Assembly: GCA_009780585.1 (NCBI GenBank)
Contig: WQZS01000003.1
Coordinates: 111,348-175,347, forward strand
DNA length: 64,000 nucleotides
Direction: 5' to 3'
From: Defluviitaleaceae bacterium
GTDB lineage: Bacteria; Bacillota; Clostridia; Lachnospirales; WQUN01
Part shown: positions 5,245 to 56,493 of the stretch, piece after piece
Layout of the letters: each line of letters begins with the position of its first letter
Numbering within the stretch: the first letter of the stretch is position 1
Made by a program: the position numbers and the translations under genes
Notes under the pieces: model-generated
Seen by the model: the letters and a program-made list of their open reading frames with translations, nothing else
Database searches by the model: none
Told to the model about the DNA's origin: nothing

Positions 5245-8523
<3,279 letters not shown>

Positions 8524-41212: not shown

Positions 41213-41989
41213 ATGGAAGCATTATTCGACCTGCGTAACGTGCGCAAGGTGTACCGCATGGGCGAGGAGCGTATCGTCGCCCTCGAGGACATAAGCATCA
41301 CCTTCGAAAAAGGAAAGATCTATTGCCTGCTCGGTACGTCCGGGTCGGGCAAGTCTACGTTACTGAATATGCTGGCCGGCTTGGAGAAACCCACCAAGGG
41401 CAGCATTATTTTTATGGGCAAGCCGTTGGAAAAATTAAACGAAAAGCAACTCGCCCTGTACCGCCAACGCTACGTGGGGTTCGTATTCCAATCCTATAAC
41501 CTGCTGCCCACCCTCACCGCGCTTGAAAACGTCACCCTCCCCCTCACCTTCCGTAAGATCAAAAAACGCGAACGCGTCAAGCGCGCCCGTGTCATGCTCA
41601 AGGCCGTGGGGTTGGGTAACCGCGCAAGGCACAAGCCTTCGGAACTCTCCGGCGGACAGCAACAGCGCGTGAGTATCGCCCGCGCGTTTATCAACAACCC
41701 GCAAGTCGTCTTCGCCGACGAACCCACGGGCAACCTCGACACCCGCACCACCTTCGAGATGATGGACCTCATCATCGGCATCGCCCGCGAACGGCAGCAA
41801 ACCTTGGTCATCGTCACCCACGACACCGAAATCGCCCAATACGCCGACCAAGTGATCCATATACGCGACGGTTCCATCGAAAGCATCACCGAACGCAAGG
41901 CTATTATGAACCAATCGGAAATTGGGAATGAAGATGAAAATAAAAATGCAACAGACGGAGGTAATGGAAATGAAGAAACAATCGTTTAA
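41213..41989 (+). CDS. MacB/LolD-type ABC ATPase
   Basis: A 258-residue ABC ATPase: Walker A GTSGSGKST, signature LSGGQQQRVSIARAF, Walker B VVFADEPTGNLD and H-loop VTHD. This is the LolD/MacB subclass that works with FtsX-like permeases. The last ~25 residues are polar and Asn-rich because the gene runs into the start of the next one, overlapping by 20 bases. TATAAT at 41169-41174. Confidence 0.93.
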   Translation: MEALFDLRNVRKVYRMGEERIVALEDISITFEKGKIYCLLGTSGSGKSTLLNMLAGLEKPTKGSIIFMGKPLEKLNEKQLALYRQRYVGFVFQSYNLLPTLTALENVTLPLTFRKIKKRERVKRARVMLKAVGLGNRARHKPSELSGGQQQRVSIARAFINNPQVVFADEPTGNLDTRTTFEMMDLIIGIARERQQTLVIVTHDTEIAQYADQVIHIRDGSIESITERKAIMNQSEIGNEDENKNATDGGNGNEETIV

Positions 41990-44621
41990 CAGGTTTACGA
42001 AAATAATCATCGCGTGGTTTTTGGCGGCGGTCATCGCATTGGCATCACCCCTGGCGGTGAATGTATCCGCATCGCCGACGGAACTGGATTTGTTACAGCA
42101 AATCCAAGAAGCCATAAATAATGGCAATCAACTTTTAGTCGTAATTTTAAATGAATTGCTTTCCGGTATGCAAAACCAACCACCCCCGCCACCACCCCCC
42201 GAACCCCCGCCCGCCCCCCAAGTATTCGAACCCATCATACGTTTATTAACGCCGCAAACGATCACCCTGGAGCCGGGCGAAACGCGGGATATCCAGTTGA
42301 CCCTGCGCAATATCGGTATCAACACCGCTTCCGAGGTGGTGACGACCGTCAGCACTTCGGGACCTTACCGGGTAGAAATCGTGGGTGCCAACCGCATCGC
42401 CAGCATCCCGCAAAACCAGGAGCGCAATATCACTCTGCGCGTCACCGCCAATGCCGACGCTTCGCCCGGGGCAGGCCCCGATATTTCCTTACGGCATGAT
42501 TTCCGTACCGCTCAACCCGGCACGGGTTCGACTTCCAACGTAATCTCCGTCCATATCGGCGGCGAAGTCACCCAACCCCCCGCTATCCAAATCGGCAATT
42601 TCCGCGGGCTCGACGCAGCCGTACTACCGGGGCAATCCTTCACCGTAACGGCGGACGTTACTAACACAGGCCGAAGCGAAGCGCGCAACATACAAATCAC
42701 GCTCCCCTCCCTTTCCCCTCATGTAATCGCCACCAATTTAAACCAAGCCCTTATACCCGCGCTGGCTCCGGGGCAAACGCAAACGCTGTCCTTCACCTTC
42801 CAAACGGCTGTCGGCACACCGCGCGGCACACAAACGCTTGAATTCCGCGCGGCTTTCACCAACGAAAACGGCCAACCGCTCGAACCGCTCAGCTTCACAA
42901 GGTTTATTAACATATCAGCCGAAGAGGACGAGGACGATATTTTCGCAAACCTGGAAATCCGCGACCTTACCGCCCCCACCGGGCGCTTTGAACCGGGGCA
43001 GACGGCTCATATTTCCATGTACCTTTCCAACACGGGCGATACGGAGCTTACGCAAATCCACATCACAGCCGCGCTCCCCGCGGGCATCAACCCCATGACG
43101 CAAACAACATACGTTATCCCCGCCCTCTCCCCCGGCGAAAGCCGGCGGGTCACCTTCTCCTTCTCCCCTTCCCCGGCGGCAGGCAACCATACACATACGA
43201 TCGGCTTTACGGCGGAATACCGCGTGGACGGCGAGGCCGCCGTACCCATCAATCAATTCGCCGCGCTCAACGTACACAACCCCGAAGCGGACGAAAACGT
43301 ACAGGACGCAAGCCAGCGCCCCTGGCTCATCATCGAGAACTTTAACGTGGACCCGACGATCGCCCGCGCGGGTCAGAATTTTACGATGACGCTGACCTTC
43401 CGCAATACCAGCGATACCCACCACGTAAACAACGCCCGCATCGTCTTTACCCCGCTGGGCGTGGGGACGCAGGGCGACGTCGTGTTTATTCCGGTAGGGG
43501 GTTCGAGCAATACGGTGTTTATCGACAACATCCCCCCCGGCGGCACGGTCACCAACGAAATGACCTTCTTTACCGTGGGCGACGCTTTGCCGCGCTCCTA
43601 TACCATGCAGGTGAATAAGATTTACCAGTCCCCCGGCTTCCCCCAAGCCTTTGACGAAAGCGTGAGCCTGAGCATCCGCGTTTCGCAGTTCGTTCGGCTG
43701 GAAACCGTGCAAGACTTTTGGATGCCCGGTATGGTGAACGTGGGCGATCCGGTCCGCATCGACTTCCAGGTCATTAACAGCGGCCGCGTAACCCTGCATA
43801 ACGTGCGCCTCCGCGTGGAGGAACACAACCACGACCCCAACAACCCCAAACTCGACACCTCGGAGGCCAACCTACCCATCGGTGAAATGCAGTCCAGCCG
43901 CTGGCTGGGGTATACCGGGCAGTTCCGTCCGTTGGTACCGGGTTTGATTACGGGTGACATCATTATCTACGGGGAAGACCCCGCCTTCGAATTGGTGGAA
44001 CACCGCATCCCCTTTGAAATTTATGTCATGGACCCGTGGGGGAACGGTGATCCGTGGGGCAACGACCCATGGGGTAATGATCCCTGGGGCAATGACCCGT
44101 GGGGCAACGATCCCTGGGGCAATGACCCATGGGGCAACGATCCTTGGGGAAATGACCCCTGGGGACAGGAAGAAGAAGAACTCGGTTGGTTCCGGCGTTT
44201 ATGGCGCTGGCTGACCACCCCCATCGGCGGATACGCGGGCAACCGCGGTAACAGCAACCAAAACAACGCACCCCCGCAGCAGGATATGTGGCACGGCGGT
44301 TGGGGCGAAGCGGATTATCAAAACGGCGGCGGTATCGAACCGCTGGGCAGGATCGTAACCGAATCCGTCCAAGTGGTCCCGCGTCCGGGCGGTGTGTCCG
44401 TCGGCAGGCCCATATCCGGCGGCAGCCCCGTTTTGCACGACCCCTGGGGTGATCCGTGGGCAGAAGAACCGGAAAGCGATTCCTTTTTCATCCACGTATG
44501 GAACTTTGTGCGGATGCCCATTTTCCTGTTCCCCTTCGGCATCGGGGTGGGCGCGGGCGTTACGCTCCTTGTAATTAAAATAAAGAAGAAGCGCGCCGCG
44601 GAGATGGACTTCGATGAGTAA
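41970..44621 (+). CDS. secreted CARDB-repeat protein with DPWGN repeats
   Basis: An 883-residue surface protein. It has a signal peptide (KKQSFNRF then a hydrophobic run, cleavage near SAS), a proline-rich spacer near 75, about four CARDB/NEW3-type beta-sandwich repeats (ITLEPGETRDIQLTLRN; VLPGQSFTVTADVTNTG; RFEPGQTAHISMYLSNTG; IARAGQNFTMTLTFRNT), nine DPWGN pentads, and a C-terminal membrane helix followed by KIKKKR. ATG chosen for its 9-base distance from GGAGG. It sits between an ABC ATPase and its permease, so it is probably an accessory to that transporter, perhaps a substrate-binding or stalk protein. Confidence 0.85.
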   Translation: MKKQSFNRFTKIIIAWFLAAVIALASPLAVNVSASPTELDLLQQIQEAINNGNQLLVVILNELLSGMQNQPPPPPPPEPPPAPQVFEPIIRLLTPQTITLEPGETRDIQLTLRNIGINTASEVVTTVSTSGPYRVEIVGANRIASIPQNQERNITLRVTANADASPGAGPDISLRHDFRTAQPGTGSTSNVISVHIGGEVTQPPAIQIGNFRGLDAAVLPGQSFTVTADVTNTGRSEARNIQITLPSLSPHVIATNLNQALIPALAPGQTQTLSFTFQTAVGTPRGTQTLEFRAAFTNENGQPLEPLSFTRFINISAEEDEDDIFANLEIRDLTAPTGRFEPGQTAHISMYLSNTGDTELTQIHITAALPAGINPMTQTTYVIPALSPGESRRVTFSFSPSPAAGNHTHTIGFTAEYRVDGEAAVPINQFAALNVHNPEADENVQDASQRPWLIIENFNVDPTIARAGQNFTMTLTFRNTSDTHHVNNARIVFTPLGVGTQGDVVFIPVGGSSNTVFIDNIPPGGTVTNEMTFFTVGDALPRSYTMQVNKIYQSPGFPQAFDESVSLSIRVSQFVRLETVQDFWMPGMVNVGDPVRIDFQVINSGRVTLHNVRLRVEEHNHDPNNPKLDTSEANLPIGEMQSSRWLGYTGQFRPLVPGLITGDIIIYGEDPAFELVEHRIPFEIYVMDPWGNGDPWGNDPWGNDPWGNDPWGNDPWGNDPWGNDPWGNDPWGQEEEELGWFRRLWRWLTTPIGGYAGNRGNSNQNNAPPQQDMWHGGWGEADYQNGGGIEPLGRIVTESVQVVPRPGGVSVGRPISGGSPVLHDPWGDPWAEEPESDSFFIHVWNFVRMPIFLFPFGIGVGAGVTLLVIKIKKKRAAEMDFDE
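44031..44168 (+). repeat. 15-bp tandem repeat (DPWGN x 9)
   Basis: Nine units of the pattern GAYCCNTGGGGNAAY, 138 bases in all including one extra Gly codon after unit 1. Most differences are third-position changes, so the peptide is conserved although the DNA has drifted. Confidence 0.95.
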
Positions 44622-46692: not shown

Positions 46693-47039
46693 GTACGGAC
46701 ATCATCAAAATAGCCCGCTTTGAAGGGATGACGCCCCGGTTTATGGAAAGGGTGTTCACCCCGGATGAGCGGGCTTATTTATTGGGTAAGCCGACCGCTT
46801 CCGCGGCGGGGCTGTTCGCAGCGAAGGAAGCGGTGGCCAAGGCACTCGGTACGGGGTTCCGGGGCTTTTGGCCGAGCGACGTGGAGATTTGGCACGATGA
46901 ATTGGGGAAACCGCAGGTTAGGCTTCACGGCGCAGCGGAACAAGCCGCAGCGAAGCAAACCGCAGGAGAACACCGCGTCCATGTAAGCATTTCGCATACG
47001 GATACAGACGCGATTGCCTTCGCGGTTGTTGAAATTTAA
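46674..47039 (+). CDS. acpS: holo-[acyl-carrier-protein] synthase
   Basis: A 121-residue AcpS that transfers 4'-phosphopantetheine to acyl carrier protein. GIGTDIIKIARFEG has the metal-binding Asp, FAAKEAVAKALGTGFRG the catalytic Glu/Lys signature, and the tail HVSISHTDTDAIAFAVVE is typical. Starts at a TTG (46674) preceded by GGGGGT; it lies inside the end of maf. No ATG gives the full N-terminus. Confidence 0.93.
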   Translation: MGILGIGTDIIKIARFEGMTPRFMERVFTPDERAYLLGKPTASAAGLFAAKEAVAKALGTGFRGFWPSDVEIWHDELGKPQVRLHGAAEQAAAKQTAGEHRVHVSISHTDTDAIAFAVVEI

Positions 47040-47100
47040 ACCATGTTTATAATGTTATGGTATAATAATTTTCAAGTCGTTATATACGGAACGGAGATAA

Positions 47101-47364
47101 ATGATGCCAACAATAAGTATGTTTAGAGGGATAAAAGTATATATAAATTATTCCGATCATGCGCCGCCGCATTTTCATGCAGTATACGGAGGGGATGATT
47201 GTTGTATTTTAATAAATGAATTGGAAGTGCTGGAAGGCCGAATTCCTTCAAAACAATTAAAAATGCTCCTTGGATGGGCGGCATTGCACCAAGATGAACT
47301 TATGGAAAATTGGAACTTGGCTGTTATTAACCAAGAAACGTTTGTAATCGATCCTTTAAGGTAA
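47101..47364 (+). CDS. DUF4160 protein
   Basis: An 87-residue protein matching DUF4160: PTISMFRGIKVYINYSDHAPPHFHAVYGG is represented by ISMFRGIKVYI and HAPPHFHAVYG. These small proteins often sit next to DUF2442 genes, as here, and the pair behaves like a mobile two-gene cassette, possibly toxin-antitoxin (inference). Nine bases separate the two. A+T-rich compared with acpS. Confidence 0.8.
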   Translation: MMPTISMFRGIKVYINYSDHAPPHFHAVYGGDDCCILINELEVLEGRIPSKQLKMLLGWAALHQDELMENWNLAVINQETFVIDPLR

Positions 47365-47373
47365 GGTGGTAAT

Positions 47374-47694
47374 ATGGCGGTTCCCAGGGAAGTGCAAGAA
47401 TATTTTAGTAATGGAAGAAAGCGGATTGTTCGGATTACCGCCGGGGACGACTACACGCTGTTATTGGAATATGATAACAATGAACAGCGTATGTACGATT
47501 TGAATGATATGCTTACCGGGGTATTGGCGGTGCTTAAGGATAAGGATAAATTTAACGAGGTTTTCATCGACGCGTTTGGGAACATCGCATGGGATATCGA
47601 TAAAAATATTGATAGTAATGTTATATTCAGCAACCGAATCGATTTATCAGCCGATAACGCGTATATCTACGGTAAAAGACTTCAAGCAAGATAA
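47374..47694 (+). CDS. DUF2442 protein
   Basis: A 106-residue protein containing a DUF2442 domain (DYTLLLEYDNNEQRMYDL; VFIDAFGNIAWD). Preceded by AAGGTGG. With DUF4160 it forms a small cassette of unknown function beside the recombinase gene. The function is not known. Confidence 0.78.
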   Translation: MAVPREVQEYFSNGRKRIVRITAGDDYTLLLEYDNNEQRMYDLNDMLTGVLAVLKDKDKFNEVFIDAFGNIAWDIDKNIDSNVIFSNRIDLSADNAYIYGKRLQAR

Positions 47695-47746
47695 ATAATA
47701 TCCCCACGCTTATCACCCCGGATATCGCGGCTATAAAATAAGCCGG

Positions 47747-48319
47747 CTACTTCGTCCCCAGCACCACTTCCTTATAAACGGCATCCAGCTCGTCCTGGCT
47801 GATACCCAGGTACTTTCGGGTAATGTTGTAGTCGGAATGGTTGTAAATATCCATTAACAAAACCACGGTTACGCCCGCTTTCCAGGCGTGGTAGCCGAAG
47901 GTCTTACGCAAGGAATGGCATGATACATGAATGGCCGCCCGATTGTTTCGGGCGGCTGTTTTTATGATGCGGTGCGCTTGGGTGCGGTTGATGGGGTCGG
48001 CGCTTGCCCGGTTGTTGGGGAAGATGAACGCCCCGTTCCGATGGGGGAAGTAAGTACTGAGCGCGCTTAGGGCGGCTTTGTTTAAGGCTATGGTCTTCGT
48101 CTTGCGGGTCTTGCCTTCGACAAGGGTGAAATGCTCACGGAACACGTTCCGTTCAAAATCGTACAGGTCTTCCCATTTGAGGGAGAGCAGGTCGCTGATG
48201 CGCAAGGCCGTGTTAAGCCCCATTACGATGAGCGTGTGGTTACGTAATTGCCCCCGCTTTAAATAATGTTCGGCAAATTCCTTTAATGCCTTCATGTCCC
48301 TGATCGGTTCCGCCGTCAT
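47747..48319 (-). CDS. small tyrosine recombinase (FimB/RecV-like)
   Basis: A 190-residue protein that is essentially only the catalytic domain of the integrase family. The catalytic residues are in place: Arg40 (LNTALRISD), Lys near 73, His135 and Arg138 (HSLRKTF), His161 (YNHSD) and nucleophile Tyr170 (ITRKYLG). It lacks the N-terminal core-binding domain of phage integrases, as do FimB, FimE and other inversion recombinases. It is divergent from the csrA-flagellin operon and separated from it by a 191-bp candidate invertible element, its probable substrate. Ribosome site GGGAGG; good promoter at 48378-48406. Confidence 0.9.
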   Translation of the reverse strand: MTAEPIRDMKALKEFAEHYLKRGQLRNHTLIVMGLNTALRISDLLSLKWEDLYDFERNVFREHFTLVEGKTRKTKTIALNKAALSALSTYFPHRNGAFIFPNNRASADPINRTQAHRIIKTAARNNRAAIHVSCHSLRKTFGYHAWKAGVTVVLLMDIYNHSDYNITRKYLGISQDELDAVYKEVVLGTK

Positions 48320-48377
48320 TAAAAATCCTCCCGATGTACGCTGATGGATGGGTGATTATTCCCCACAACTATTTAAC

Positions 48378-48406
48378 AGTATACGTACGTCTTATTACGC
48401 AGTCAA
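48378..48406 (-). promoter_or_regulatory. sigma-A promoter of the recombinase gene
   Basis: On the minus strand TTGACT (48406-48401), 17 bp, TATACT (48383-48378), 59 bases before the start codon. A near-consensus promoter lying outside the inverted repeats, so recombinase expression should not flip. Confidence 0.75.
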
Positions 48407-48490
48407 ACATATAACGATAATTTTCAACAACCCGCGTATGGATTTCCGTCCGCGCTTTAGGCATTTTTAGCGCTTCCAATAAAAGATGCA

Positions 48491-48681
48491 ACCTTTGATT
48501 AGAAAGGTTGCATCTTTATTTCCTAATTCTATATCGGGCTAAGGGCTTCGCGCCTTTAGCCCTTTTTCTATGTTGAGAAAAATTCACCGTCATAAATCCC
48601 ATGAACGGCAAAAAAAGGCGTATTTACTGGCTTCCCGCCGATTTTCATTTCTTGGATTATGCAACCTTTCTAATCAAAGGT
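48491..48681. mobile_element. candidate invertible element upstream of csrA-flagellin
   Basis: A 23-bp sequence at 48491-48513 recurs as its exact reverse complement at 48659-48681, enclosing 145 bp. The left repeat lies in a larger symmetric site: 15-bp inverted arms (AAAGATGCAACCTTT at 48482 and its complement from 48503) around a 6-base asymmetric centre GATTAG. The right site has the same arm core and centre CTAATC, in inverted orientation. This is the structure of tyrosine-recombinase crossover sites. It ends 22 bases before csrA, and a tyrosine recombinase gene lies on its other side. The 384-bp gap at 48320-48703 is thus fully explained. Confidence 0.75.
48536..48567 (+). terminator. 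terminator inside the invertible segment
   Basis: An 11-bp stem (GGGCTAAGGGC / GCCTTTAGCCC, one G-T pair) with a five-base loop and TTTTT. In the orientation seen here it would stop transcripts coming from the left before csrA; if the segment were flipped the T-tract would be on the wrong side. Confidence 0.85.
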
Positions 48682-48703
48682 GCTATCCAGGGAGGGAACG
48701 GCC

Positions 48704-48928
48704 ATGTTGGTACTGACATTGGCGGAAGGGGACTACATCCAAATCGGCGATGACACGCGGGTCTACATCGATTGCACGGCGGGCGACGACGCGCTGGCGA
48801 TCGCCATCGACGCACCCGGGGACGCGAAGGTCCTGCGCGGCAAGCTCTACGAGGAAGCCAACCCCGGCAAACGCGGCGACGGCATCCCCCACAAGCGCAA
48901 CAACCGCAACCGCAGGAAGGCGGGCTAA
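48704..48928 (+). CDS. csrA: CsrA-like RNA-binding protein 1
   Basis: A 74-residue CsrA homologue: MLVLTLAEGDYIQIGDD at the start, AIAIDAP in the middle and VLRGKLYEE at the end, aligned with the CsrA core (Arg of the HREEIY motif kept as LRGKLY). Position 6 is Leu instead of the RNA-contacting Arg. A basic tail follows (GIPHKRNNRNRRKAG). CsrA dimers block translation by binding GGA in hairpin loops; in Bacillus the flagellin mRNA is the main target. Ribosome site GGGAGGG. Two bases separate it from the second copy. Confidence 0.85.
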   Translation: MLVLTLAEGDYIQIGDDTRVYIDCTAGDDALAIAIDAPGDAKVLRGKLYEEANPGKRGDGIPHKRNNRNRRKAG

Positions 48929-48930
48929 CC

Positions 48931-49167
48931 ATGTTGCAACTCACCTTATCCAAAAACGACTACGTGATGATCGGCGACTCCATCCGCGTCCAATACGCCC
49001 GCAACAACGGTAAGGACACCTTCTCGATAGCGGTAAGCGCGCCCAAGGAACTCAAGATCGAGCGCAAGAGCGTATTCGACGAAGGCGAAAAATCAGCCGC
49101 CGAACACCGCCGCCGCGCCAACATCCGCAGGGCCAACCAAGCTCGCTACCTCAAGCAACCCCTATAA
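48931..49167 (+). CDS. csrA: CsrA-like RNA-binding protein 2
   Basis: A 78-residue second CsrA homologue, clearly diverged from the first: MLQLTLSKNDYVMIGDS, FSIAVSAPKELKIERKSVF. The late RNA-binding Arg is kept (IERKSVF) and position 6 is again Leu. The C-terminal tail is strongly basic (EHRRRANIRRANQARYLK). The tandem pair may form heterodimers with altered RNA specificity (inference). It lies 171 bases before flagellin, with no terminator between, so flagellin and its regulators probably share a transcript. Confidence 0.82.
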   Translation: MLQLTLSKNDYVMIGDSIRVQYARNNGKDTFSIAVSAPKELKIERKSVFDEGEKSAAEHRRRANIRRANQARYLKQPL

Positions 49168-49338
49168 CGGCATTAAACCGGGTCGACACGGTTTGATCAT
49201 ATTCCCGAAAGGGATATAGCTGACCTTAAACAAGCAGCCGAAGCGGGGCAACCCCCCGCGCACAGGAGAAACATTCGCCAAGGAAACGCGGACCGCAACC
49301 CATCCGCATAAGGCGACCTCTCCTCTTAGGAGGATATC
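49168..49338 (+). promoter_or_regulatory. flagellin leader with candidate CsrA sites
   Basis: The 171-base leader has GGA motifs at CACAGGAGAAAC (about 49259-49270), CCAAGGAAAC (about 49277-49286) and in the ribosome site itself: CTCCTCTTAGGAGG forms a 5-bp stem (CTCCT/AGGAG, loop CTT) that masks the Shine-Dalgarno. Multiple GGA sites with one over the ribosome site is how Bacillus CsrA represses hag. Confidence 0.55.
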
Positions 49339-52300
49339 ATGAGTAATATGGTAGTAAGGACGAACGTCCTGGCCCTCAACGCCCACCGCAACTTGGGTAT
49401 GACGGGACTCCAGCAATCCAGGTCATCCGCAAGGCTTAGTTCCGGCTTCCGCATCAACTCCGCAGCCGACGACGCAGCAGGGCTGGGCATCAGCGAAAAG
49501 ATGCGCGCCCAAATCCGCGGGCTCGACCAAGCCGCCCGCAACGCGCAAGACGGCATCAGCCTCATCCAAACCGCCGAAGGCGCGATGGGTACGATCAACG
49601 ACATGGTAAAGCGCATCCGCGACCTGGTGGTGCAAGCCGCTAACGACACCAACGCCCACTTAATGCAAAACGAAGCCACCTGGTCGCAATCCGACCGTAC
49701 CCGCATCCAGGATGAAATCAACCAGCTCCTGGCGGAAATCGACGGCACCGTAGAGCGCACGGAATTTAACACCCGCAGGCTGCTCGACGGCTCGCTGGCG
49801 GCGGGTTCCGATGCCGAAACAGGCAAGGTAGCCAACGGTGATTATAACCCCGGCGCTTCCGCCATCGTAAGGGTAGGCGACCAATGGGTGCTTAACCAAG
49901 CCGCGTTTGAAAATGTGTTTAACGCGAACTTCAACATCGACGTAACCGACAAAATGAACGCGTGGGCGGTAGAGCAAGGCGCGGTGGACTTTGACGCGTG
50001 GATCGCCGCCAATGCCGGCAACGTGGGTACGACCGTAAATACGGTTGTTGCGCCCTTCTCTCCGGCACAGGTAGCGGAAATTATCAACCTTGACAACCAA
50101 AGGGATCCGGCTGTCGTTTCCGATTTCGGTACATTGGAAAACTTCCTTAACGGTTTAATCAAGAGCGACGAATTTGCTGCTATCTTTAAAACGATGGGTA
50201 TAGAAAACGCGGAAGATTTAATGAAAGGTATAACCCTTTCCAGTCAAACCAACTTTGTCAATGCATTAAACGGTTGGGGCGGACTTAACGGCAATGCCGC
50301 ATTGGGTACGCAAATGCTTGTACACCTTGATAATTGGGCTAACCAATACATCGTCAACGGCGGTGATATTGTAACGGCGGAAACAAGGGCAGGCGCCGGT
50401 CAGCATTATTTGGTTAACCAAATCGGCGTTGGCGTAGGTGGTTTTGCTGTTAACAACGTAATTAACAACCATACGGTTGTACAGGCTGACCTCGACGAAG
50501 CCGGTGCTCTTTACGGTAAGACGATTCAAGAAATATTAGCCGCCGGAGCGACACTAACCATTTCAGGCGCTGCCACAGTTGACGTTCCTGCTAACGCAGC
50601 CATTAACAACGTAACATTGCGCCCCGTAGGTGACCACGCCGGAGCGGTATTAACGATTGGTGATTCCATTAACGGCGTGCAAGTTACGGAAGAATCGATT
50701 GATGAAGGCGGTTTCCACCACACCTTGTTTGGCGGTGTCGGTCTTATCGCTTTAACCTCCGAAGGTAGCGCTAATTCGATTACCAGCGGTGGTACTACCG
50801 GTACTGACCCCGCTACCGCTCTGCGCCCCGGTCAAGACCTTAACGGCCATGTGTTAACCCCCGATGACCTCCACGCAGGCGGCGTACACGCAGCCAGGGG
50901 TATTACCGGCGACATGACCATTGCGGAATTGCTTGCCGCACTTGATGATCTTGACGGTACCGCCGTTTTGGCGCTCGGTGCCGGCACCAGTTCCTATGCG
51001 GCTATTCCAACCGTCGGTGCTGCTCATGTAAGGGAAGAAGGTCAGTTCGTTAATTTCCAATTAAAAGCAGGGGATTGGTTCGGCGTAAACGCAACGAGCA
51101 TCACCCAAGTAACGGAAGCCTCACTCCGTGGTCCCGGTATTCATCACAGCATATTAGGTCTCACCGATGCCGATGACGGCAGGACGTTAAACTTCGCCGG
51201 ACCCCTCGTAGAAGGCGCGGGCTTCTTCGCACTTATCGGGCGTTCCGAGTTCCAAGGAGCTTACGGCGTGGATACACCCGGCAGCGTACACCTGTCCTTC
51301 TTGCAAGCCAACGCCACCGCACAGGATGAAAGCGGAGGCCCGGTATCCATCGCGGAACGCATGTTTGATGTACTTGCCGCCGCGCCGGAAGCAGCACGTA
51401 ATGATTTAATTGCCGGTGGCGGTGTTTTGGCGGATGTAATGGCTATGGGTAATTTTACCGACAACCGTAAGGAAATCGTAGAAGCTCTTGCCGGTTGGTT
51501 AAAGGACGAGTTTGGCGGATTCGCCGGTGCCGCGTTTATTTACGGCATTGATGTAACGCCCGACAACGCCTTTACCGTAGATAACATGATCCGCGCGTTA
51601 GCGGGCAATCCCGATAACGACGACCATGATGGCCAAGGCATGACTTTTAACTCCGCTACCCCCAACGATGCTCAATCCACACGTACCCGCAACCTTGCGG
51701 AAAACTTGATTAACGCGTTCGACGCTTGGGCAAGGGACTTTACCAGCCCTGCGGGGCAATCCTTCGATGACTTTGCCGAATGGACGACTTGGGCGTTCTC
51801 CGGTTCTCCCGGTTCTTACTTCACCTATGACAGCGTGGAGAACAAACTCAACCATGCCGCCAACGGCGCGACCATCAGTTCCATCATCCCCGAATTCGCA
51901 GAAGAAGAAACAGCCGCAGCCGTAGACGGCGGGCAATTGTGGTTCCAAATCGGCGCCAACGCGGGTCAAGGCGTGCAGCTCAACATTGAATCGGTTAATG
52001 TAGCGGCTCTCAGCGCGGTAGGCGAACGTGGCGGCGTAGAAAGCGGTTTCAACTTTGCCGATCTGCGTTCCGACGACACCACTTTCGCGTCCCGCGGACA
52101 AGGCGTTATGAAGGTTAGCGGCGAGGATATATCAAAATATCTTACCGCCATTGACTTTGCTCTCTCCCACGCCACCAGCCAACGTTCCAACCTGGGTGCT
52201 ATGCAGAATCGCTTGGAATTCACCATCGAAAACCTCCAGGTATCCAGCGAAAACCTGTCCGCAGCCGAATCCCGCATCCGCGATGCTGACATGGCTAAGG

Positions 52301-52404
52301 AAATGATGCGCTTCACGCAGTCCAACATCCTGCAACAAGCCGCCATTTCCATGCTGGCGCAAGCCAACCAAGCTCCTAATATGCTGTTGAGCTTGTTGAG
52401 GTAA
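49339..52404 (+). CDS. fliC: very large flagellin
   Basis: A 1021-residue flagellin, roughly twice to four times usual size. Residues 1-155 are the conserved D0/D1 (NVLALNAHRNLGMTG, SSGFRINSAADDAAGLGISE, GISLIQTAEGAM, IRDLVVQAANDT). Residues about 885-1021 are the C-terminal D1/D0 (WFQIGANAGQG, AIDFALSHATSQRSNLGAMQ, ENLSAAESRIRDADMAKEM, MLAQANQAPNMLLSLLR). The ~720-residue middle is a surface-exposed variable domain with four diverged repeats around G-x-H. The Arg/Leu/Gln contact residues of the TLR5 site are kept (KRIRDLVVQAA). Ribosome site AGGAGG. Exported by the flagellar type III system. Confidence 0.95.
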   Translation: MSNMVVRTNVLALNAHRNLGMTGLQQSRSSARLSSGFRINSAADDAAGLGISEKMRAQIRGLDQAARNAQDGISLIQTAEGAMGTINDMVKRIRDLVVQAANDTNAHLMQNEATWSQSDRTRIQDEINQLLAEIDGTVERTEFNTRRLLDGSLAAGSDAETGKVANGDYNPGASAIVRVGDQWVLNQAAFENVFNANFNIDVTDKMNAWAVEQGAVDFDAWIAANAGNVGTTVNTVVAPFSPAQVAEIINLDNQRDPAVVSDFGTLENFLNGLIKSDEFAAIFKTMGIENAEDLMKGITLSSQTNFVNALNGWGGLNGNAALGTQMLVHLDNWANQYIVNGGDIVTAETRAGAGQHYLVNQIGVGVGGFAVNNVINNHTVVQADLDEAGALYGKTIQEILAAGATLTISGAATVDVPANAAINNVTLRPVGDHAGAVLTIGDSINGVQVTEESIDEGGFHHTLFGGVGLIALTSEGSANSITSGGTTGTDPATALRPGQDLNGHVLTPDDLHAGGVHAARGITGDMTIAELLAALDDLDGTAVLALGAGTSSYAAIPTVGAAHVREEGQFVNFQLKAGDWFGVNATSITQVTEASLRGPGIHHSILGLTDADDGRTLNFAGPLVEGAGFFALIGRSEFQGAYGVDTPGSVHLSFLQANATAQDESGGPVSIAERMFDVLAAAPEAARNDLIAGGGVLADVMAMGNFTDNRKEIVEALAGWLKDEFGGFAGAAFIYGIDVTPDNAFTVDNMIRALAGNPDNDDHDGQGMTFNSATPNDAQSTRTRNLAENLINAFDAWARDFTSPAGQSFDDFAEWTTWAFSGSPGSYFTYDSVENKLNHAANGATISSIIPEFAEEETAAAVDGGQLWFQIGANAGQGVQLNIESVNVAALSAVGERGGVESGFNFADLRSDDTTFASRGQGVMKVSGEDISKYLTAIDFALSHATSQRSNLGAMQNRLEFTIENLQVSSENLSAAESRIRDADMAKEMMRFTQSNILQQAAISMLAQANQAPNMLLSLLR

Positions 52405-52485: not shown

Positions 52486-53823
52486 ATGCAAAAGTATTTT
52501 TTAAGCATTGATATGGGTGGAACAAAAACAGACTTATTGCTTTTTACGGTAGAAGGGGATTATATGGATTTTTGTACCCAACCCAGCCCCAAAGTCCAAG
52601 GTCATGTTGGCGCAATAGCCGACGAAATAAAGAAAAGTGTAATTTATTTTCTCAAGCGCAATCAGGTTTCGTTAAATGATATAGCTAAAATTACGTTAGG
52701 ATTGGTACAAATCGCCGATAACAAGGGCAGAATGACATTAACGAAATTATTACGTAAAGCGCTAAGGAGTGAAAACATAAATGTTATGACAGATGGTAAC
52801 CTTGCTATGTGCGGATACGCGACAAATCAATGGGCTGGGGTTTATTGTATTTCCGGTACAGGGGAAATGGTTTTAGCCTCTGATATAAAAGATAACCATA
52901 AAAGCATACCCGGGAATGACAATATTATAGCGGGTAAATCAAGCGGCAATTATCTTCACGAAAAAGCGATATCGTTATTATTTGATTCATACCATCGCTA
53001 CGGCGATGATTCAATCGCTTTTTCGCACATCATAGAATTATTGAAGTTTGATAAAAATAAATTAATCGATTCCATCATCAACGGACGGAAATTAATAAAA
53101 AGCAAGGCTAAAGAAATTATAGAAATTATGGATTTTGCTGCTATGTGCGGAGACAATGTCGCCGTCAATTTATTTTTAAAAGCGGGTATCAGCGCTGCTC
53201 ATTCTGTCGCGGGTTGCATGAAGGGGCTTGATTTCAACGGATTGGGTATACGAAAAAACCCCATACCTATTATATTAATGGGTAGCATATGGTGTAAGCT
53301 CTTAAATAATGTTATGCGTACTTCCTTTGCAAAAACCGTACATGATATAACGGGATACCATTTTCATATCGTCGTGTCAGCTATACCCCCCGCTGTAGGT
53401 GGTATCATCCATGCAAAGGTAAACAAAGGTGATTATACCCCCGATTTCCGTAAAAAGGTGATGGATGAAGCGATAAAAAATATAACAAACGCAGAAATAA
53501 ATAATTATTTAAGCACAAGCCCCACCGATGCAGATTTATTTCGTTTTTATATGATAATAAAAATGAATAATCAAAATGTAGCTGATATATTTAATTTATC
53601 TGCAAATATTAATAATCTTTTAAAAAAGAATCCTCTGTTATCCGGCATAACCGATAATTTAGCAGTTATCTTCCTCCCTGCCATATGCGCAATAATGGAT
53701 AAGGATTATGATACCGCCCTCCACCGCTTCGCTATGATTTCCCGTTTTGCACAAATTCCCCCGCACCTTGCCGAAATGCAATTAAAATTGGGTAGAAGTA
53801 TCAACGCCGCCGCAAAAATATAA
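52486..53823 (+). CDS. BadF/BadG-type ATPase, N-acetylglucosamine-kinase-like
   Basis: A 445-residue actin-fold (ASKHA) sugar-kinase-like protein. Phosphate 1 motif SIDMGGTKTDLLLF, connect/phosphate 2 ISGTGEMVLA, and adenosine-side MGSIWCKLL are visible. The first ~320 residues fit BadF/BadG GlcNAc kinases; the last ~115 are an extra helical region that I do not recognise. Its place right after the flagellin terminator could mean a link to flagellin glycosylation or amino-sugar salvage, but that is inference. A+T-rich; ribosome site weak (GAAAGTG). Confidence 0.75.
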   Translation: MQKYFLSIDMGGTKTDLLLFTVEGDYMDFCTQPSPKVQGHVGAIADEIKKSVIYFLKRNQVSLNDIAKITLGLVQIADNKGRMTLTKLLRKALRSENINVMTDGNLAMCGYATNQWAGVYCISGTGEMVLASDIKDNHKSIPGNDNIIAGKSSGNYLHEKAISLLFDSYHRYGDDSIAFSHIIELLKFDKNKLIDSIINGRKLIKSKAKEIIEIMDFAAMCGDNVAVNLFLKAGISAAHSVAGCMKGLDFNGLGIRKNPIPIILMGSIWCKLLNNVMRTSFAKTVHDITGYHFHIVVSAIPPAVGGIIHAKVNKGDYTPDFRKKVMDEAIKNITNAEINNYLSTSPTDADLFRFYMIIKMNNQNVADIFNLSANINNLLKKNPLLSGITDNLAVIFLPAICAIMDKDYDTALHRFAMISRFAQIPPHLAEMQLKLGRSINAAAKI

Positions 53824-55907: not shown

Positions 55908-56192
55908 TCAATCAAACAAATCGGTGTGTGTACCTGTTTCGACCAAAACGAGAATAAGATGTTTTTCAATCTTCCGGTAAATTAGTAACCAATCACCGCT
56001 TCCCGCAATGTGACATTCACGATACCCTTTATAATTCCCCCTAAGCGGATGATCCCGATATTGCGGCGGCATAGGTTTGCCGCTTGCCAACAATTCGATG
56101 GTTACCGTTAAGTCATCCATTGCATAACCACGCTTTACTACTTTCCTTACGCTGCGGCGGAATGATTTGAGTGATCGGTCTATCTCATACAT
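55908..56192 (-). CDS. yafQ: YafQ-family mRNA interferase toxin
   Basis: A RelE-superfamily toxin of 94 residues (100 if started at 56210). The key C-terminal pattern is present: YRDHPLRGNYKGYRECHI, DWLLIYR and LVETGTHTDLF with the catalytic His. By family it cleaves mRNA at the ribosome and is held in check by DinJ. The antitoxin gene comes first and overlaps by a few bases, the usual order. I prefer the ATG at 56192 from comparison with other YafQ lengths. Confidence 0.9.
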   Translation of the reverse strand: MYEIDRSLKSFRRSVRKVVKRGYAMDDLTVTIELLASGKPMPPQYRDHPLRGNYKGYRECHIAGSGDWLLIYRKIEKHLILVLVETGTHTDLFD

Positions 56193-56493
56193 CACTATCA
56201 TCTTCTTCATTTAGAATTTCGTTGAGAAAATCCCGGACACTATTATAAGGCGCAGGTTTACGTGTACCGTTGGTATATTCGTTTACAAGTCTTTCCGATG
56301 CATATAGCGCGTTTAACAAGTTCTCATTGGGTTGTTGGTAACGGACATCAAAGGGAAATCCATAATGCATAATTGATTTATGCAAAAAAACATTAATCGC
56401 GTCGCTTAATTTGAGCCCAAGGGATGAATAAATTTTTTCAGCACTTTCCTTAACCCCCGGGTCGATGCGGATATTGTACGTTGCGGTTTTCAT
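56185..56493 (-). CDS. dinJ: RelB/DinJ-family antitoxin
   Basis: A 102-residue protein with the DinJ ribbon-helix-helix start (TATYNIRIDPGVKESAEKIYSSLGLKLSDAINVFL, abbreviated here as YNIRIDPGVKESAEKIY) and a longer toxin-binding tail ending EEDDSDV. It neutralises the adjacent YafQ and probably represses the operon. AAGGTGA before the ATG. Confidence 0.9.
   Translation of the reverse strand: MKTATYNIRIDPGVKESAEKIYSSLGLKLSDAINVFLHKSIMHYGFPFDVRYQQPNENLLNALYASERLVNEYTNGTRKPAPYNSVRDFLNEILNEEDDSDV

What the first reader, a model, noticed from the sequence alone, without database searches (positions are those of the whole stretch)
48320..49340. Probable phase-variation switch: 191-bp invertible element driving csrA-csrA-flagellin, with its own recombinase
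Seen: a perfect 23-bp inverted repeat (48491-48513, 48659-48681) around 145 bp, directly before the csrA ribosome site. The left repeat lies in a 15-bp inverted-arm site with a 6-base asymmetric centre (GATTAG), and the right site has CTAATC. A 190-residue tyrosine recombinase with all catalytic residues is divergently transcribed from outside the repeats. The segment holds a terminator oriented to block transcription in the present state. On the minus strand of the segment, TAAA (48626-48623), 13 bp, GCCGTTCA (48609-) faintly resembles a flagellar sigma-D promoter that would face csrA only after inversion. Known: Fim switches and the C. difficile flagellar switch with RecV use this architecture. 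Inference: motility here flips on and off by DNA inversion, and the present orientation is OFF.
Basis: partly seen in the sequence, partly recalled or inferred. Interest (0 to 1): 0.93.

Follow-up and report, generated by a model that had tools for sequence, protein, structure and literature searches.

The report
Flippable flagellin-operon promoter with own recombinase
Beside an operon for two CsrA-like regulators and a flagellin lies a 191-base DNA segment bounded by inverted sites with a recombinase gene next door; it is likely a flip switch, predicted to sit in the OFF position here, and related segments are found reversed between matching stretches of other bacterial genomes.

Summary
A perfect 23-bp inverted repeat (48491-48513/48659-48681) flanks 145 bp between a divergent 190-aa tyrosine recombinase and csrA-csrA-flagellin. 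It is not isolated. In 120 related recombinase loci, a loosely matched site pair ATGYAAC-N14/15-GTTRCAT lies just upstream of the recombinase in 52 (controls 2, 0, 6), and inverted sites enclose the recombinase gene in 29 others (controls 1, 0). Reversed segments are seen in L083/L084 (one locus, two assemblies) and L195/L196 (two copies in one genome). Of 26 enclosing loci with csrA, 24 have one orientation and 2 the other. A better flagellar sigma-D match, TAAA-N16-CCCGATAT (minus strand 48558-48531), lies inside the terminator hairpin and points away from csrA: predicted OFF. 'Motility on/off' is doubtful, because the genome holds a flagellin paralogue with a sigma-D match that has no such sites; flagellin exchange is likelier. 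Inversion in this organism is not shown, and the right site's outer arm is decayed. Closest known: C. difficile RecV switches; Salmonella Hin in layout only. New variant of a known kind.

The parts
47747..48319 (-). 190-residue tyrosine recombinase (catalytic domain only), divergent from the operon
   Evidence: PF00589 3e-24; catalytic residues conserved in 18 aligned sequences; best solved relatives by sequence are Xer recombinases
48378..48406 (-). sigma-A-like promoter TTGACT-17-TATACT, predicted to drive the recombinase from outside the switch
   Evidence: 10 of 12; 1 found, shuffles mean 0.9, so weak on its own
48482..48517 (.). left recombination site: 15-bp arms around core GATTAG (48497-48502)
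   Evidence: family motif with 0 mismatches
48514..48658 (.). 145-bp segment predicted to invert
48536..48567 (+). intrinsic-terminator-like hairpin facing csrA in the orientation seen
48531..48558 (-). predicted flagellar sigma-D promoter TAAA-N16-CCCGATAT inside the terminator hairpin; would face csrA after inversion
   Evidence: 11 of 12; 3 of 300 shuffles as good; 6 such hits in 64 kb, both strands
48659..48686 (.). right recombination site: core CTAATC (48670-48675), outer arm degenerate
48704..48928 (+). csrA-like gene 1 (74 aa)
   Evidence: PF02599 4.8e-11
48931..49167 (+). csrA-like gene 2 (78 aa)
   Evidence: PF02599 6.8e-11
49339..52404 (+). 1021-residue flagellin with a long central region
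   Evidence: Flagellin_N 1.5e-38, Flagellin_C 1.1e-27
47035..49328 (.). stretch present here in place of the roughly 0.2-kb acpS-flagellin spacer of same-genus genome G002
   Evidence: homology stops at 47034 and resumes at 49329; sigma-D match in the G002 spacer

Best explanation
The 191-bp segment 48491-48681 is likely a site-specific inversion switch that the neighbouring tyrosine recombinase would flip, and in the orientation seen its predicted sigma-D promoter points away from csrA-csrA-flagellin, so the operon is predicted to be OFF. Shown by sequence: inverted sites with an asymmetric core, a recombinase with its catalytic residues, a terminator-like hairpin facing csrA, and a sigma-D-type match on the opposite strand inside that hairpin. 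Shown in relatives: segments with this site motif occur in both orientations beside matching DNA. Inferred: the recombinase binds both sites and exchanges strands in the 6-bp core; inversion places the sigma-D match 62 bp before csrA1; one transcript then makes two CsrA-like proteins and this flagellin; in the OFF state the terminator stops read-through. Because a near-twin flagellin elsewhere has a sigma-D match without these sites, the likely outcome is a change or mix of filament protein, not loss of motility.
For: Own locus. Family: site pairs within 800 bp upstream of the recombinase in 52 of 120 loci against 2 of 120 read backwards, 0 of 120 shuffled and 6 of 118 downstream stretches; 29 other loci have the recombinase gene enclosed by inverted sites against 1 of 120 read backwards and 0 of 120 shuffled. 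Inversion: L083/L084 align forward over 2.3 kb while a 164-bp stretch that spans the sites matches reversed at 96%; turning 136 bp of it round in a script gives a match apart from two-base gaps at the two joints. L195/L196, copies in genome G005, match forward over 811 bp (94%, recombinase side) and 252 bp (89%, target side) and reversed over the 171-bp switch (95%). L130 and L141 carry csrA-flagellin on the opposite side from the other 24 of 26. Promoter logic: in 27 of 29 enclosing loci a sigma-D match of 10/12 or better between the recombinase stop and the far site reads outward; 1 of 29 on the other strand. Syntenic relative: L162 (G058) has recombinase-switch-csrA-csrA-flagellin and a sigma-D match of 11/12 in the same direction.
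Against: No inverted copy in this assembly and no reads to test. The right outer arm is decayed, so the switch may be slow or locked. Only one relative with the same layout was found (L162), also predicted OFF and with no terminator by my rule. The sigma-D matches in L159 (9/12) and L136 (8/12) are no better than shuffles, and L151 (10/12) only weakly so (34 of 300). Sigma-A-like promoters are not enriched in the small segments. L196 has about 470 bp more than L195 between recombinase and switch, so that pair is not a pure inversion. A 62%-identical recombinase in G071 has no convincing site beside it.
Confidence: 0.82

Rival explanations
1. CwpV-type switch: the promoter lies left of the left site and inversion only adds or removes the terminator.
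For: A strong terminator-like hairpin faces csrA; 25 of 52 small segments hold one on one strand only, 22 facing the target and 3 the recombinase, against 10 of 520 one-strand mononucleotide shuffles; cwpV works this way (PMC2784873, passages seen).
Against: No sigma-70-like + strand promoter in 48300-48720 and no + strand sigma-D match of 10/12 in 48320-49338, by consensus scans only; relative L162 has no terminator by my rule; the 29 enclosing loci follow promoter logic.
Confidence: 0.08
2. A former switch now locked OFF by decay of the right site's outer arm.
For: 3 mismatches in the right site's arms against 0 in the left; single orientation in the assembly.
Against: The 23-bp repeat is perfect, the recombinase is intact, and 7 other paired loci of 52 also have a site with 3 or more mismatches.
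Confidence: 0.12
3. The repeats are only operators or a terminator of the recombinase gene, or ends of a small integrative element, and do not invert.
For: The left site alone is a 15-bp palindrome that folds (-21.9 kcal/mol); the recombinase lies in a 2.3-kb stretch absent at this place in G002.
Against: Two reversed pairs in related loci and both sides of csrA occupied in the enclosing group; cores are inverted between left and right sites across the family.
Confidence: 0.03

Closest known systems
C. difficile flagellar switch and cwpV switch with RecV (PMC5386303, PMC2784873; passages seen)
   Same: A tyrosine recombinase inverts a short segment (154 bp with 21-bp imperfect repeats; 195 bp between 21-bp repeats in cwpV) before a flagellar or surface gene; a terminator features in the cwpV model.
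   Different: RecV serves several switches and recV is not near cwpV; the paper reports no recognisable sequence identity between the repeats of the two switches; cwpV's promoter lies outside the segment, and flg regulation acts after transcription initiation. Here the recombinase is adjacent, the sites share a family motif, and a sigma-D promoter is predicted inside the segment.
Salmonella Hin flagellin switch
   Same: In the 29 relatives with an enclosed recombinase the layout matches: recombinase gene within the invertible DNA, promoter at one end, flagellin operon beside it in most. Hin lying inside the inverted DNA is stated in PMC2784873 (passage).
   Different: Hin is a serine recombinase (PMC3798978, start of abstract in the listing), these are tyrosine recombinases; the neighbouring regulator is CsrA, not FljA (FljA's role recalled). 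In this window the recombinase lies outside the segment.
E. coli fim switch (FimB/FimE)
   Same: Short promoter segment with a tyrosine recombinase beside it (recalled and PMC2784873 passage); weak match to NCBI models named tyrosine-type DNA invertase.
   Different: Far below those models' cut-offs (34.5 against 222, 29.9 against 221); one recombinase gene here; flagellin target.

Membership tests
Tyrosine recombinases (PF00589) | Catalytic domain with R-K-H-R-H-Y residues | tested here: met
   PF00589 86.2 bits against 27.1 cut-off; R40, K73/K75, H135, R138, H161, Y170 conserved; residue roles recalled
Promoter-inversion phase-variation switches | Inverted sites flanking a segment before the target gene | tested here: met
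Promoter-inversion phase-variation switches | Segment found in both orientations | tested here: inconclusive
   Met in relatives L083/L084 and L195/L196; not testable for this genome without reads; one orientation in the assembly
Promoter-inversion phase-variation switches | Promoter inside the segment that reaches the target in one orientation only | tested here: inconclusive
   Sigma-D match of 11/12 on one strand, best on the other 8/12; no transcription data
RecV-type switches of C. difficile | Recombinase is an orthologue of RecV | not tested
   No RecV sequence was fetched
Hin flagellin switch | Serine recombinase | tested here: not met
   Tyrosine recombinase
Hin flagellin switch | Recombinase gene inside the invertible segment | tested here: not met
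   Outside in the window; inside in 29 relatives
CwpV-type terminator switch | Promoter upstream of the inverted repeats | tested here: inconclusive
   No + strand promoter-like match left of the repeat, but these are consensus scans only

The most novel reading that the evidence does not exclude
Clostridia related to this genome have independently built a counterpart of Salmonella's Hin flagellin switch from a minimal tyrosine recombinase: the sigma-D promoter flips onto a csrA-flagellin operon, and the co-switched CsrA proteins play FljA's part by silencing the mRNA of the other flagellin, so that one inversion swaps the filament. In this window the promoter is written inside an intrinsic terminator, so the same hairpin DNA is a stop in one orientation and a start in the other.
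Probability: 0.35. Interest if true: 0.88.

Novelty: new variant of a known kind. Interest (0 to 1): 0.74.

Why it matters
Flagellin is a major antigen of gut Clostridia (recalled). A recombinase-linked switch on csrA-flagellin operons in many of them would mean that flagellin output is bistable and heritable, and could explain silent flagellin genes. The shared site motif makes it searchable in existing read sets, and a promoter nested in a terminator hairpin would be a compact two-state design.

Tried and rejected
Sigma-A promoters as the general rule in small segments: not enriched (of 52, 9 best toward the target, 8 toward the recombinase, 35 undecided; 115 of 520 one-strand shuffles pass). 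Many Lachnospiraceae loci looked single-sited at first; of 28 with csrA nearby, 26 then showed an inverted partner beyond the recombinase stop, L140 and L090 did not. Rfam: four hits, all below gathering scores, at the palindromes. A sister of G058 (G071) for the opposite orientation: 12 genomes searched, recombinase in 2, no convincing site in G071. A pattern search over 392 genomes for site plus CCGATA gave 2 hits, G058 and G080, no new syntenic relative. Structure model: mean pLDDT 67.5, residues 130-190 nearly all under 50, so weak support only; best PDB match XerA. Tree (114 of 120 proteins; 6 left out by my stop/length filter): this recombinase and L162 group with small-switch loci, L151 and L159 with enclosed-recombinase loci; 51 of 110 inner branches are open.

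Literature: ten searches. Judged by titles and starts of abstracts, none of the listed papers describes a recombinase switch before csrA-flagellin in Lachnospiraceae; the library holds open-licence PMC papers only, so prior description elsewhere is possible. PMC3720852 (Roseburia and Eubacterium flagellins; passages): 0 occurrences of recombinase or integrase in the main text. PMC5903667 (passages and section 13): inversions in Clostridia mostly near signalling and chemotaxis genes, flagella named among surface structures near invertible sites in general, an enclosed recombinase in a Providencia fimbriae locus, and 0 occurrences of flagellin; its table S2 was not seen.
Full report
Observation. 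The 23-bp perfect inverted repeat, its coordinates and the divergent recombinase are as described. The left site is a 15-bp palindrome around GATTAG; the right site keeps the inner arm, the core CTAATC and part of the outer arm, the rest having decayed. In the own genome (3.1 Mb, 53 contigs) the site pattern with up to 2 mismatches occurs only here. The terminator-like hairpin at 48536-48562 faces csrA. The only sigma-A-like promoter found in 48300-48720 is on the minus strand at 48406-48378, outside the repeats and facing the recombinase; one hit is no more than shuffles give.

Promoter. TAAA / GCCGATAT or GCCGATAA was used as the flagellar sigma-D pattern (recalled consensus). Of 18 stretches upstream of Flagellin_N matches (5 own, 13 same genus), 11 hold a match of 10/12 or better and 7 hold none; the own flagellin on contig C2 scores 12/12. 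In the switch the best match is minus strand 48558-48531, 11/12, spacer 16. It was reached by 3 of 300 dinucleotide shuffles, and the 64-kb window holds 6 such hits on both strands. It lies within the hairpin's stem. Reversal in a script puts its -10 end 62 bp before the csrA1 start. Both point away from csrA in the state seen.

Family. A search of 61 genomes (own plus 60 relatives; 53 match at E 0.001, ordinary Xer-type integrases included) and 80 named loci of genome contigs, the best 80 of 376, gave 120 recombinase loci: 80 named, 38 strong matches fetched with wider flanks, the own locus and L028. Two contig-edge fragments of G002 (L200, L201) and the weaker or partial matches were left out. 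One record is present twice, L146/L165. A loosely matched site pair (at most 9 mismatches in the 28 arm positions, inverted cores, spacer 14 in 49 and 15 in 3) lies within 800 bp upstream of the recombinase in 52 of 120; the same rule gives 2 of 120 read backwards, 0 of 120 shuffled and 6 of 118 downstream stretches. Median segment 115 bp. In 29 other loci the inverted sites enclose the recombinase gene (segments 663-1225 bp), against 1 of 120 read backwards and 0 of 120 shuffled. Either layout is found in 80 of the 107 loci with at least 300 bp held upstream. L083, L084 and L149 show site pairs but fell below the pairing rule and are not counted.

Inversion seen. L083 (a MAG contig) and L084 (Lachnospiraceae bacterium A4) align forward over 2.3 kb, while a 164-bp stretch that spans the sites matches reversed (96%); turning 136 bp round restores the match apart from two-base gaps at my joints. 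L195 and L196 are paralogues in genome G005: both flanks match forward, the 171-bp switch matches reversed, and L196 has about 470 bp more between recombinase and switch. In the enclosed-recombinase group csrA is present in 26 of 29 loci: divergent from the recombinase in 24, on the other side in 2 (L130, L141). Flagellin follows in 25 of these 26 (not found in L113); L143 has flagellins on both sides and no csrA hit; L154 and L199 have neither. In 27 of 29 a sigma-D match of at least 10/12 between the recombinase stop and the far site reads outward (not in L122 and L199; 1 of 29 on the other strand), so the divergent loci are predicted OFF and L130 and L141 ON.

Placement of this locus. Its nearest fully syntenic relative is L162 (G058, another family of the order): recombinase 60% identical, switch, csrA, csrA, flagellin, with a sigma-D match of 11/12 in the same direction. 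In same-genus G002 the acpS-flagellin spacer is about 0.2 kb and carries a sigma-D match of 10/12; the 2.3 kb with DUF4160, DUF2442, recombinase, switch and both csrA genes is absent at this place. So a flagellin behind a fixed sigma-D match and one behind a switch sit at the same chromosomal place; which state is older is not shown. The two flagellins are 51% identical.

Function. The genome has a fliW-csrA pair elsewhere (FliW assigned by eye, no domain search) and a near-twin flagellin on C2 (95% identical over the first 153 residues, 83% over the last 155). The leaders of that flagellin and of the G002 one fold with AAGGA in a hairpin loop, a CsrA-type site (motif recalled); in the switched flagellin's leader the GGA motifs fall in other contexts. 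This fits, but does not show, a scheme in which the switched CsrA proteins repress the other flagellin. Other small switches precede genes that look like surface, pilin-like and capsule-type genes (read by eye, not domain-searched).

Against. No reads, one orientation here, a decayed right arm, and weak or absent promoter matches in L159, L151 and L136. G071 carries a 62%-identical recombinase with no convincing site. Small segments in general show no sigma-A enrichment, so how the non-flagellar ones work is open; the terminators in 25 of 52 (22 facing the target, 3 facing the recombinase) may point to a cwpV-like mode in some.

Known versus new. Inversion switches by tyrosine recombinases before flagellar and surface genes are known in C. 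difficile (PMC5386303, PMC2784873, passages seen), and inversion signatures are reported in Clostridia (PMC5903667, passages and section 13 seen). What the ten searches did not list is a recombinase-linked family with a shared site motif placed on csrA-flagellin, including the enclosed-recombinase layout. Hence new variant of a known kind.

Noticed in passing
L083:1185-1739 and L084:6001-6555 with their upstream 300 bp: The same locus in two assemblies (one is Lachnospiraceae bacterium A4) with the switch in opposite orientations; the target side starts with a 223-residue ORF.
   Followed up: partly
G031 and G035 (L172-L192): 7 and 6 near-full-length recombinase copies fetched, several with the same switch layout; several of their contigs end within 100 bp upstream of the recombinase, perhaps because of paralogues or mixed orientations.
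   Followed up: no
L143, recombinase at 6001-6573: Enclosed recombinase between two outward-facing flagellin genes: one flip could swap one flagellin for the other.
   Followed up: partly
52 small-switch segments: About half carry a terminator-like hairpin on one strand, mostly facing the target, far above shuffles; its role outside the flagellar loci is unexplained.
   Followed up: partly
6 of 118 stretches 400-1200 bp downstream of recombinase stops: Site pairs also occur there; some may be the far sites of enclosed loci or further switches.
   Followed up: no
L234 (G071:C116): A 62%-identical recombinase lies downstream of a flagellin and a BadF-like ORF with no convincing site; the flagellin is followed by a BadF-like gene in the window too (52486-53823).
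   Followed up: partly
window 47101-47694: DUF4160 and DUF2442 genes, absent at this place in G002.
   Followed up: no
window 55908-56493: Small gene pair on the minus strand that looks like a YafQ/DinJ-type toxin-antitoxin pair (read by eye, not searched).
   Followed up: no
window 41922-44621: Surface-type protein with a run of DPWGN repeats near its C-terminus, between genes that look like an ABC transporter ATPase and a permease (by eye).
   Followed up: no
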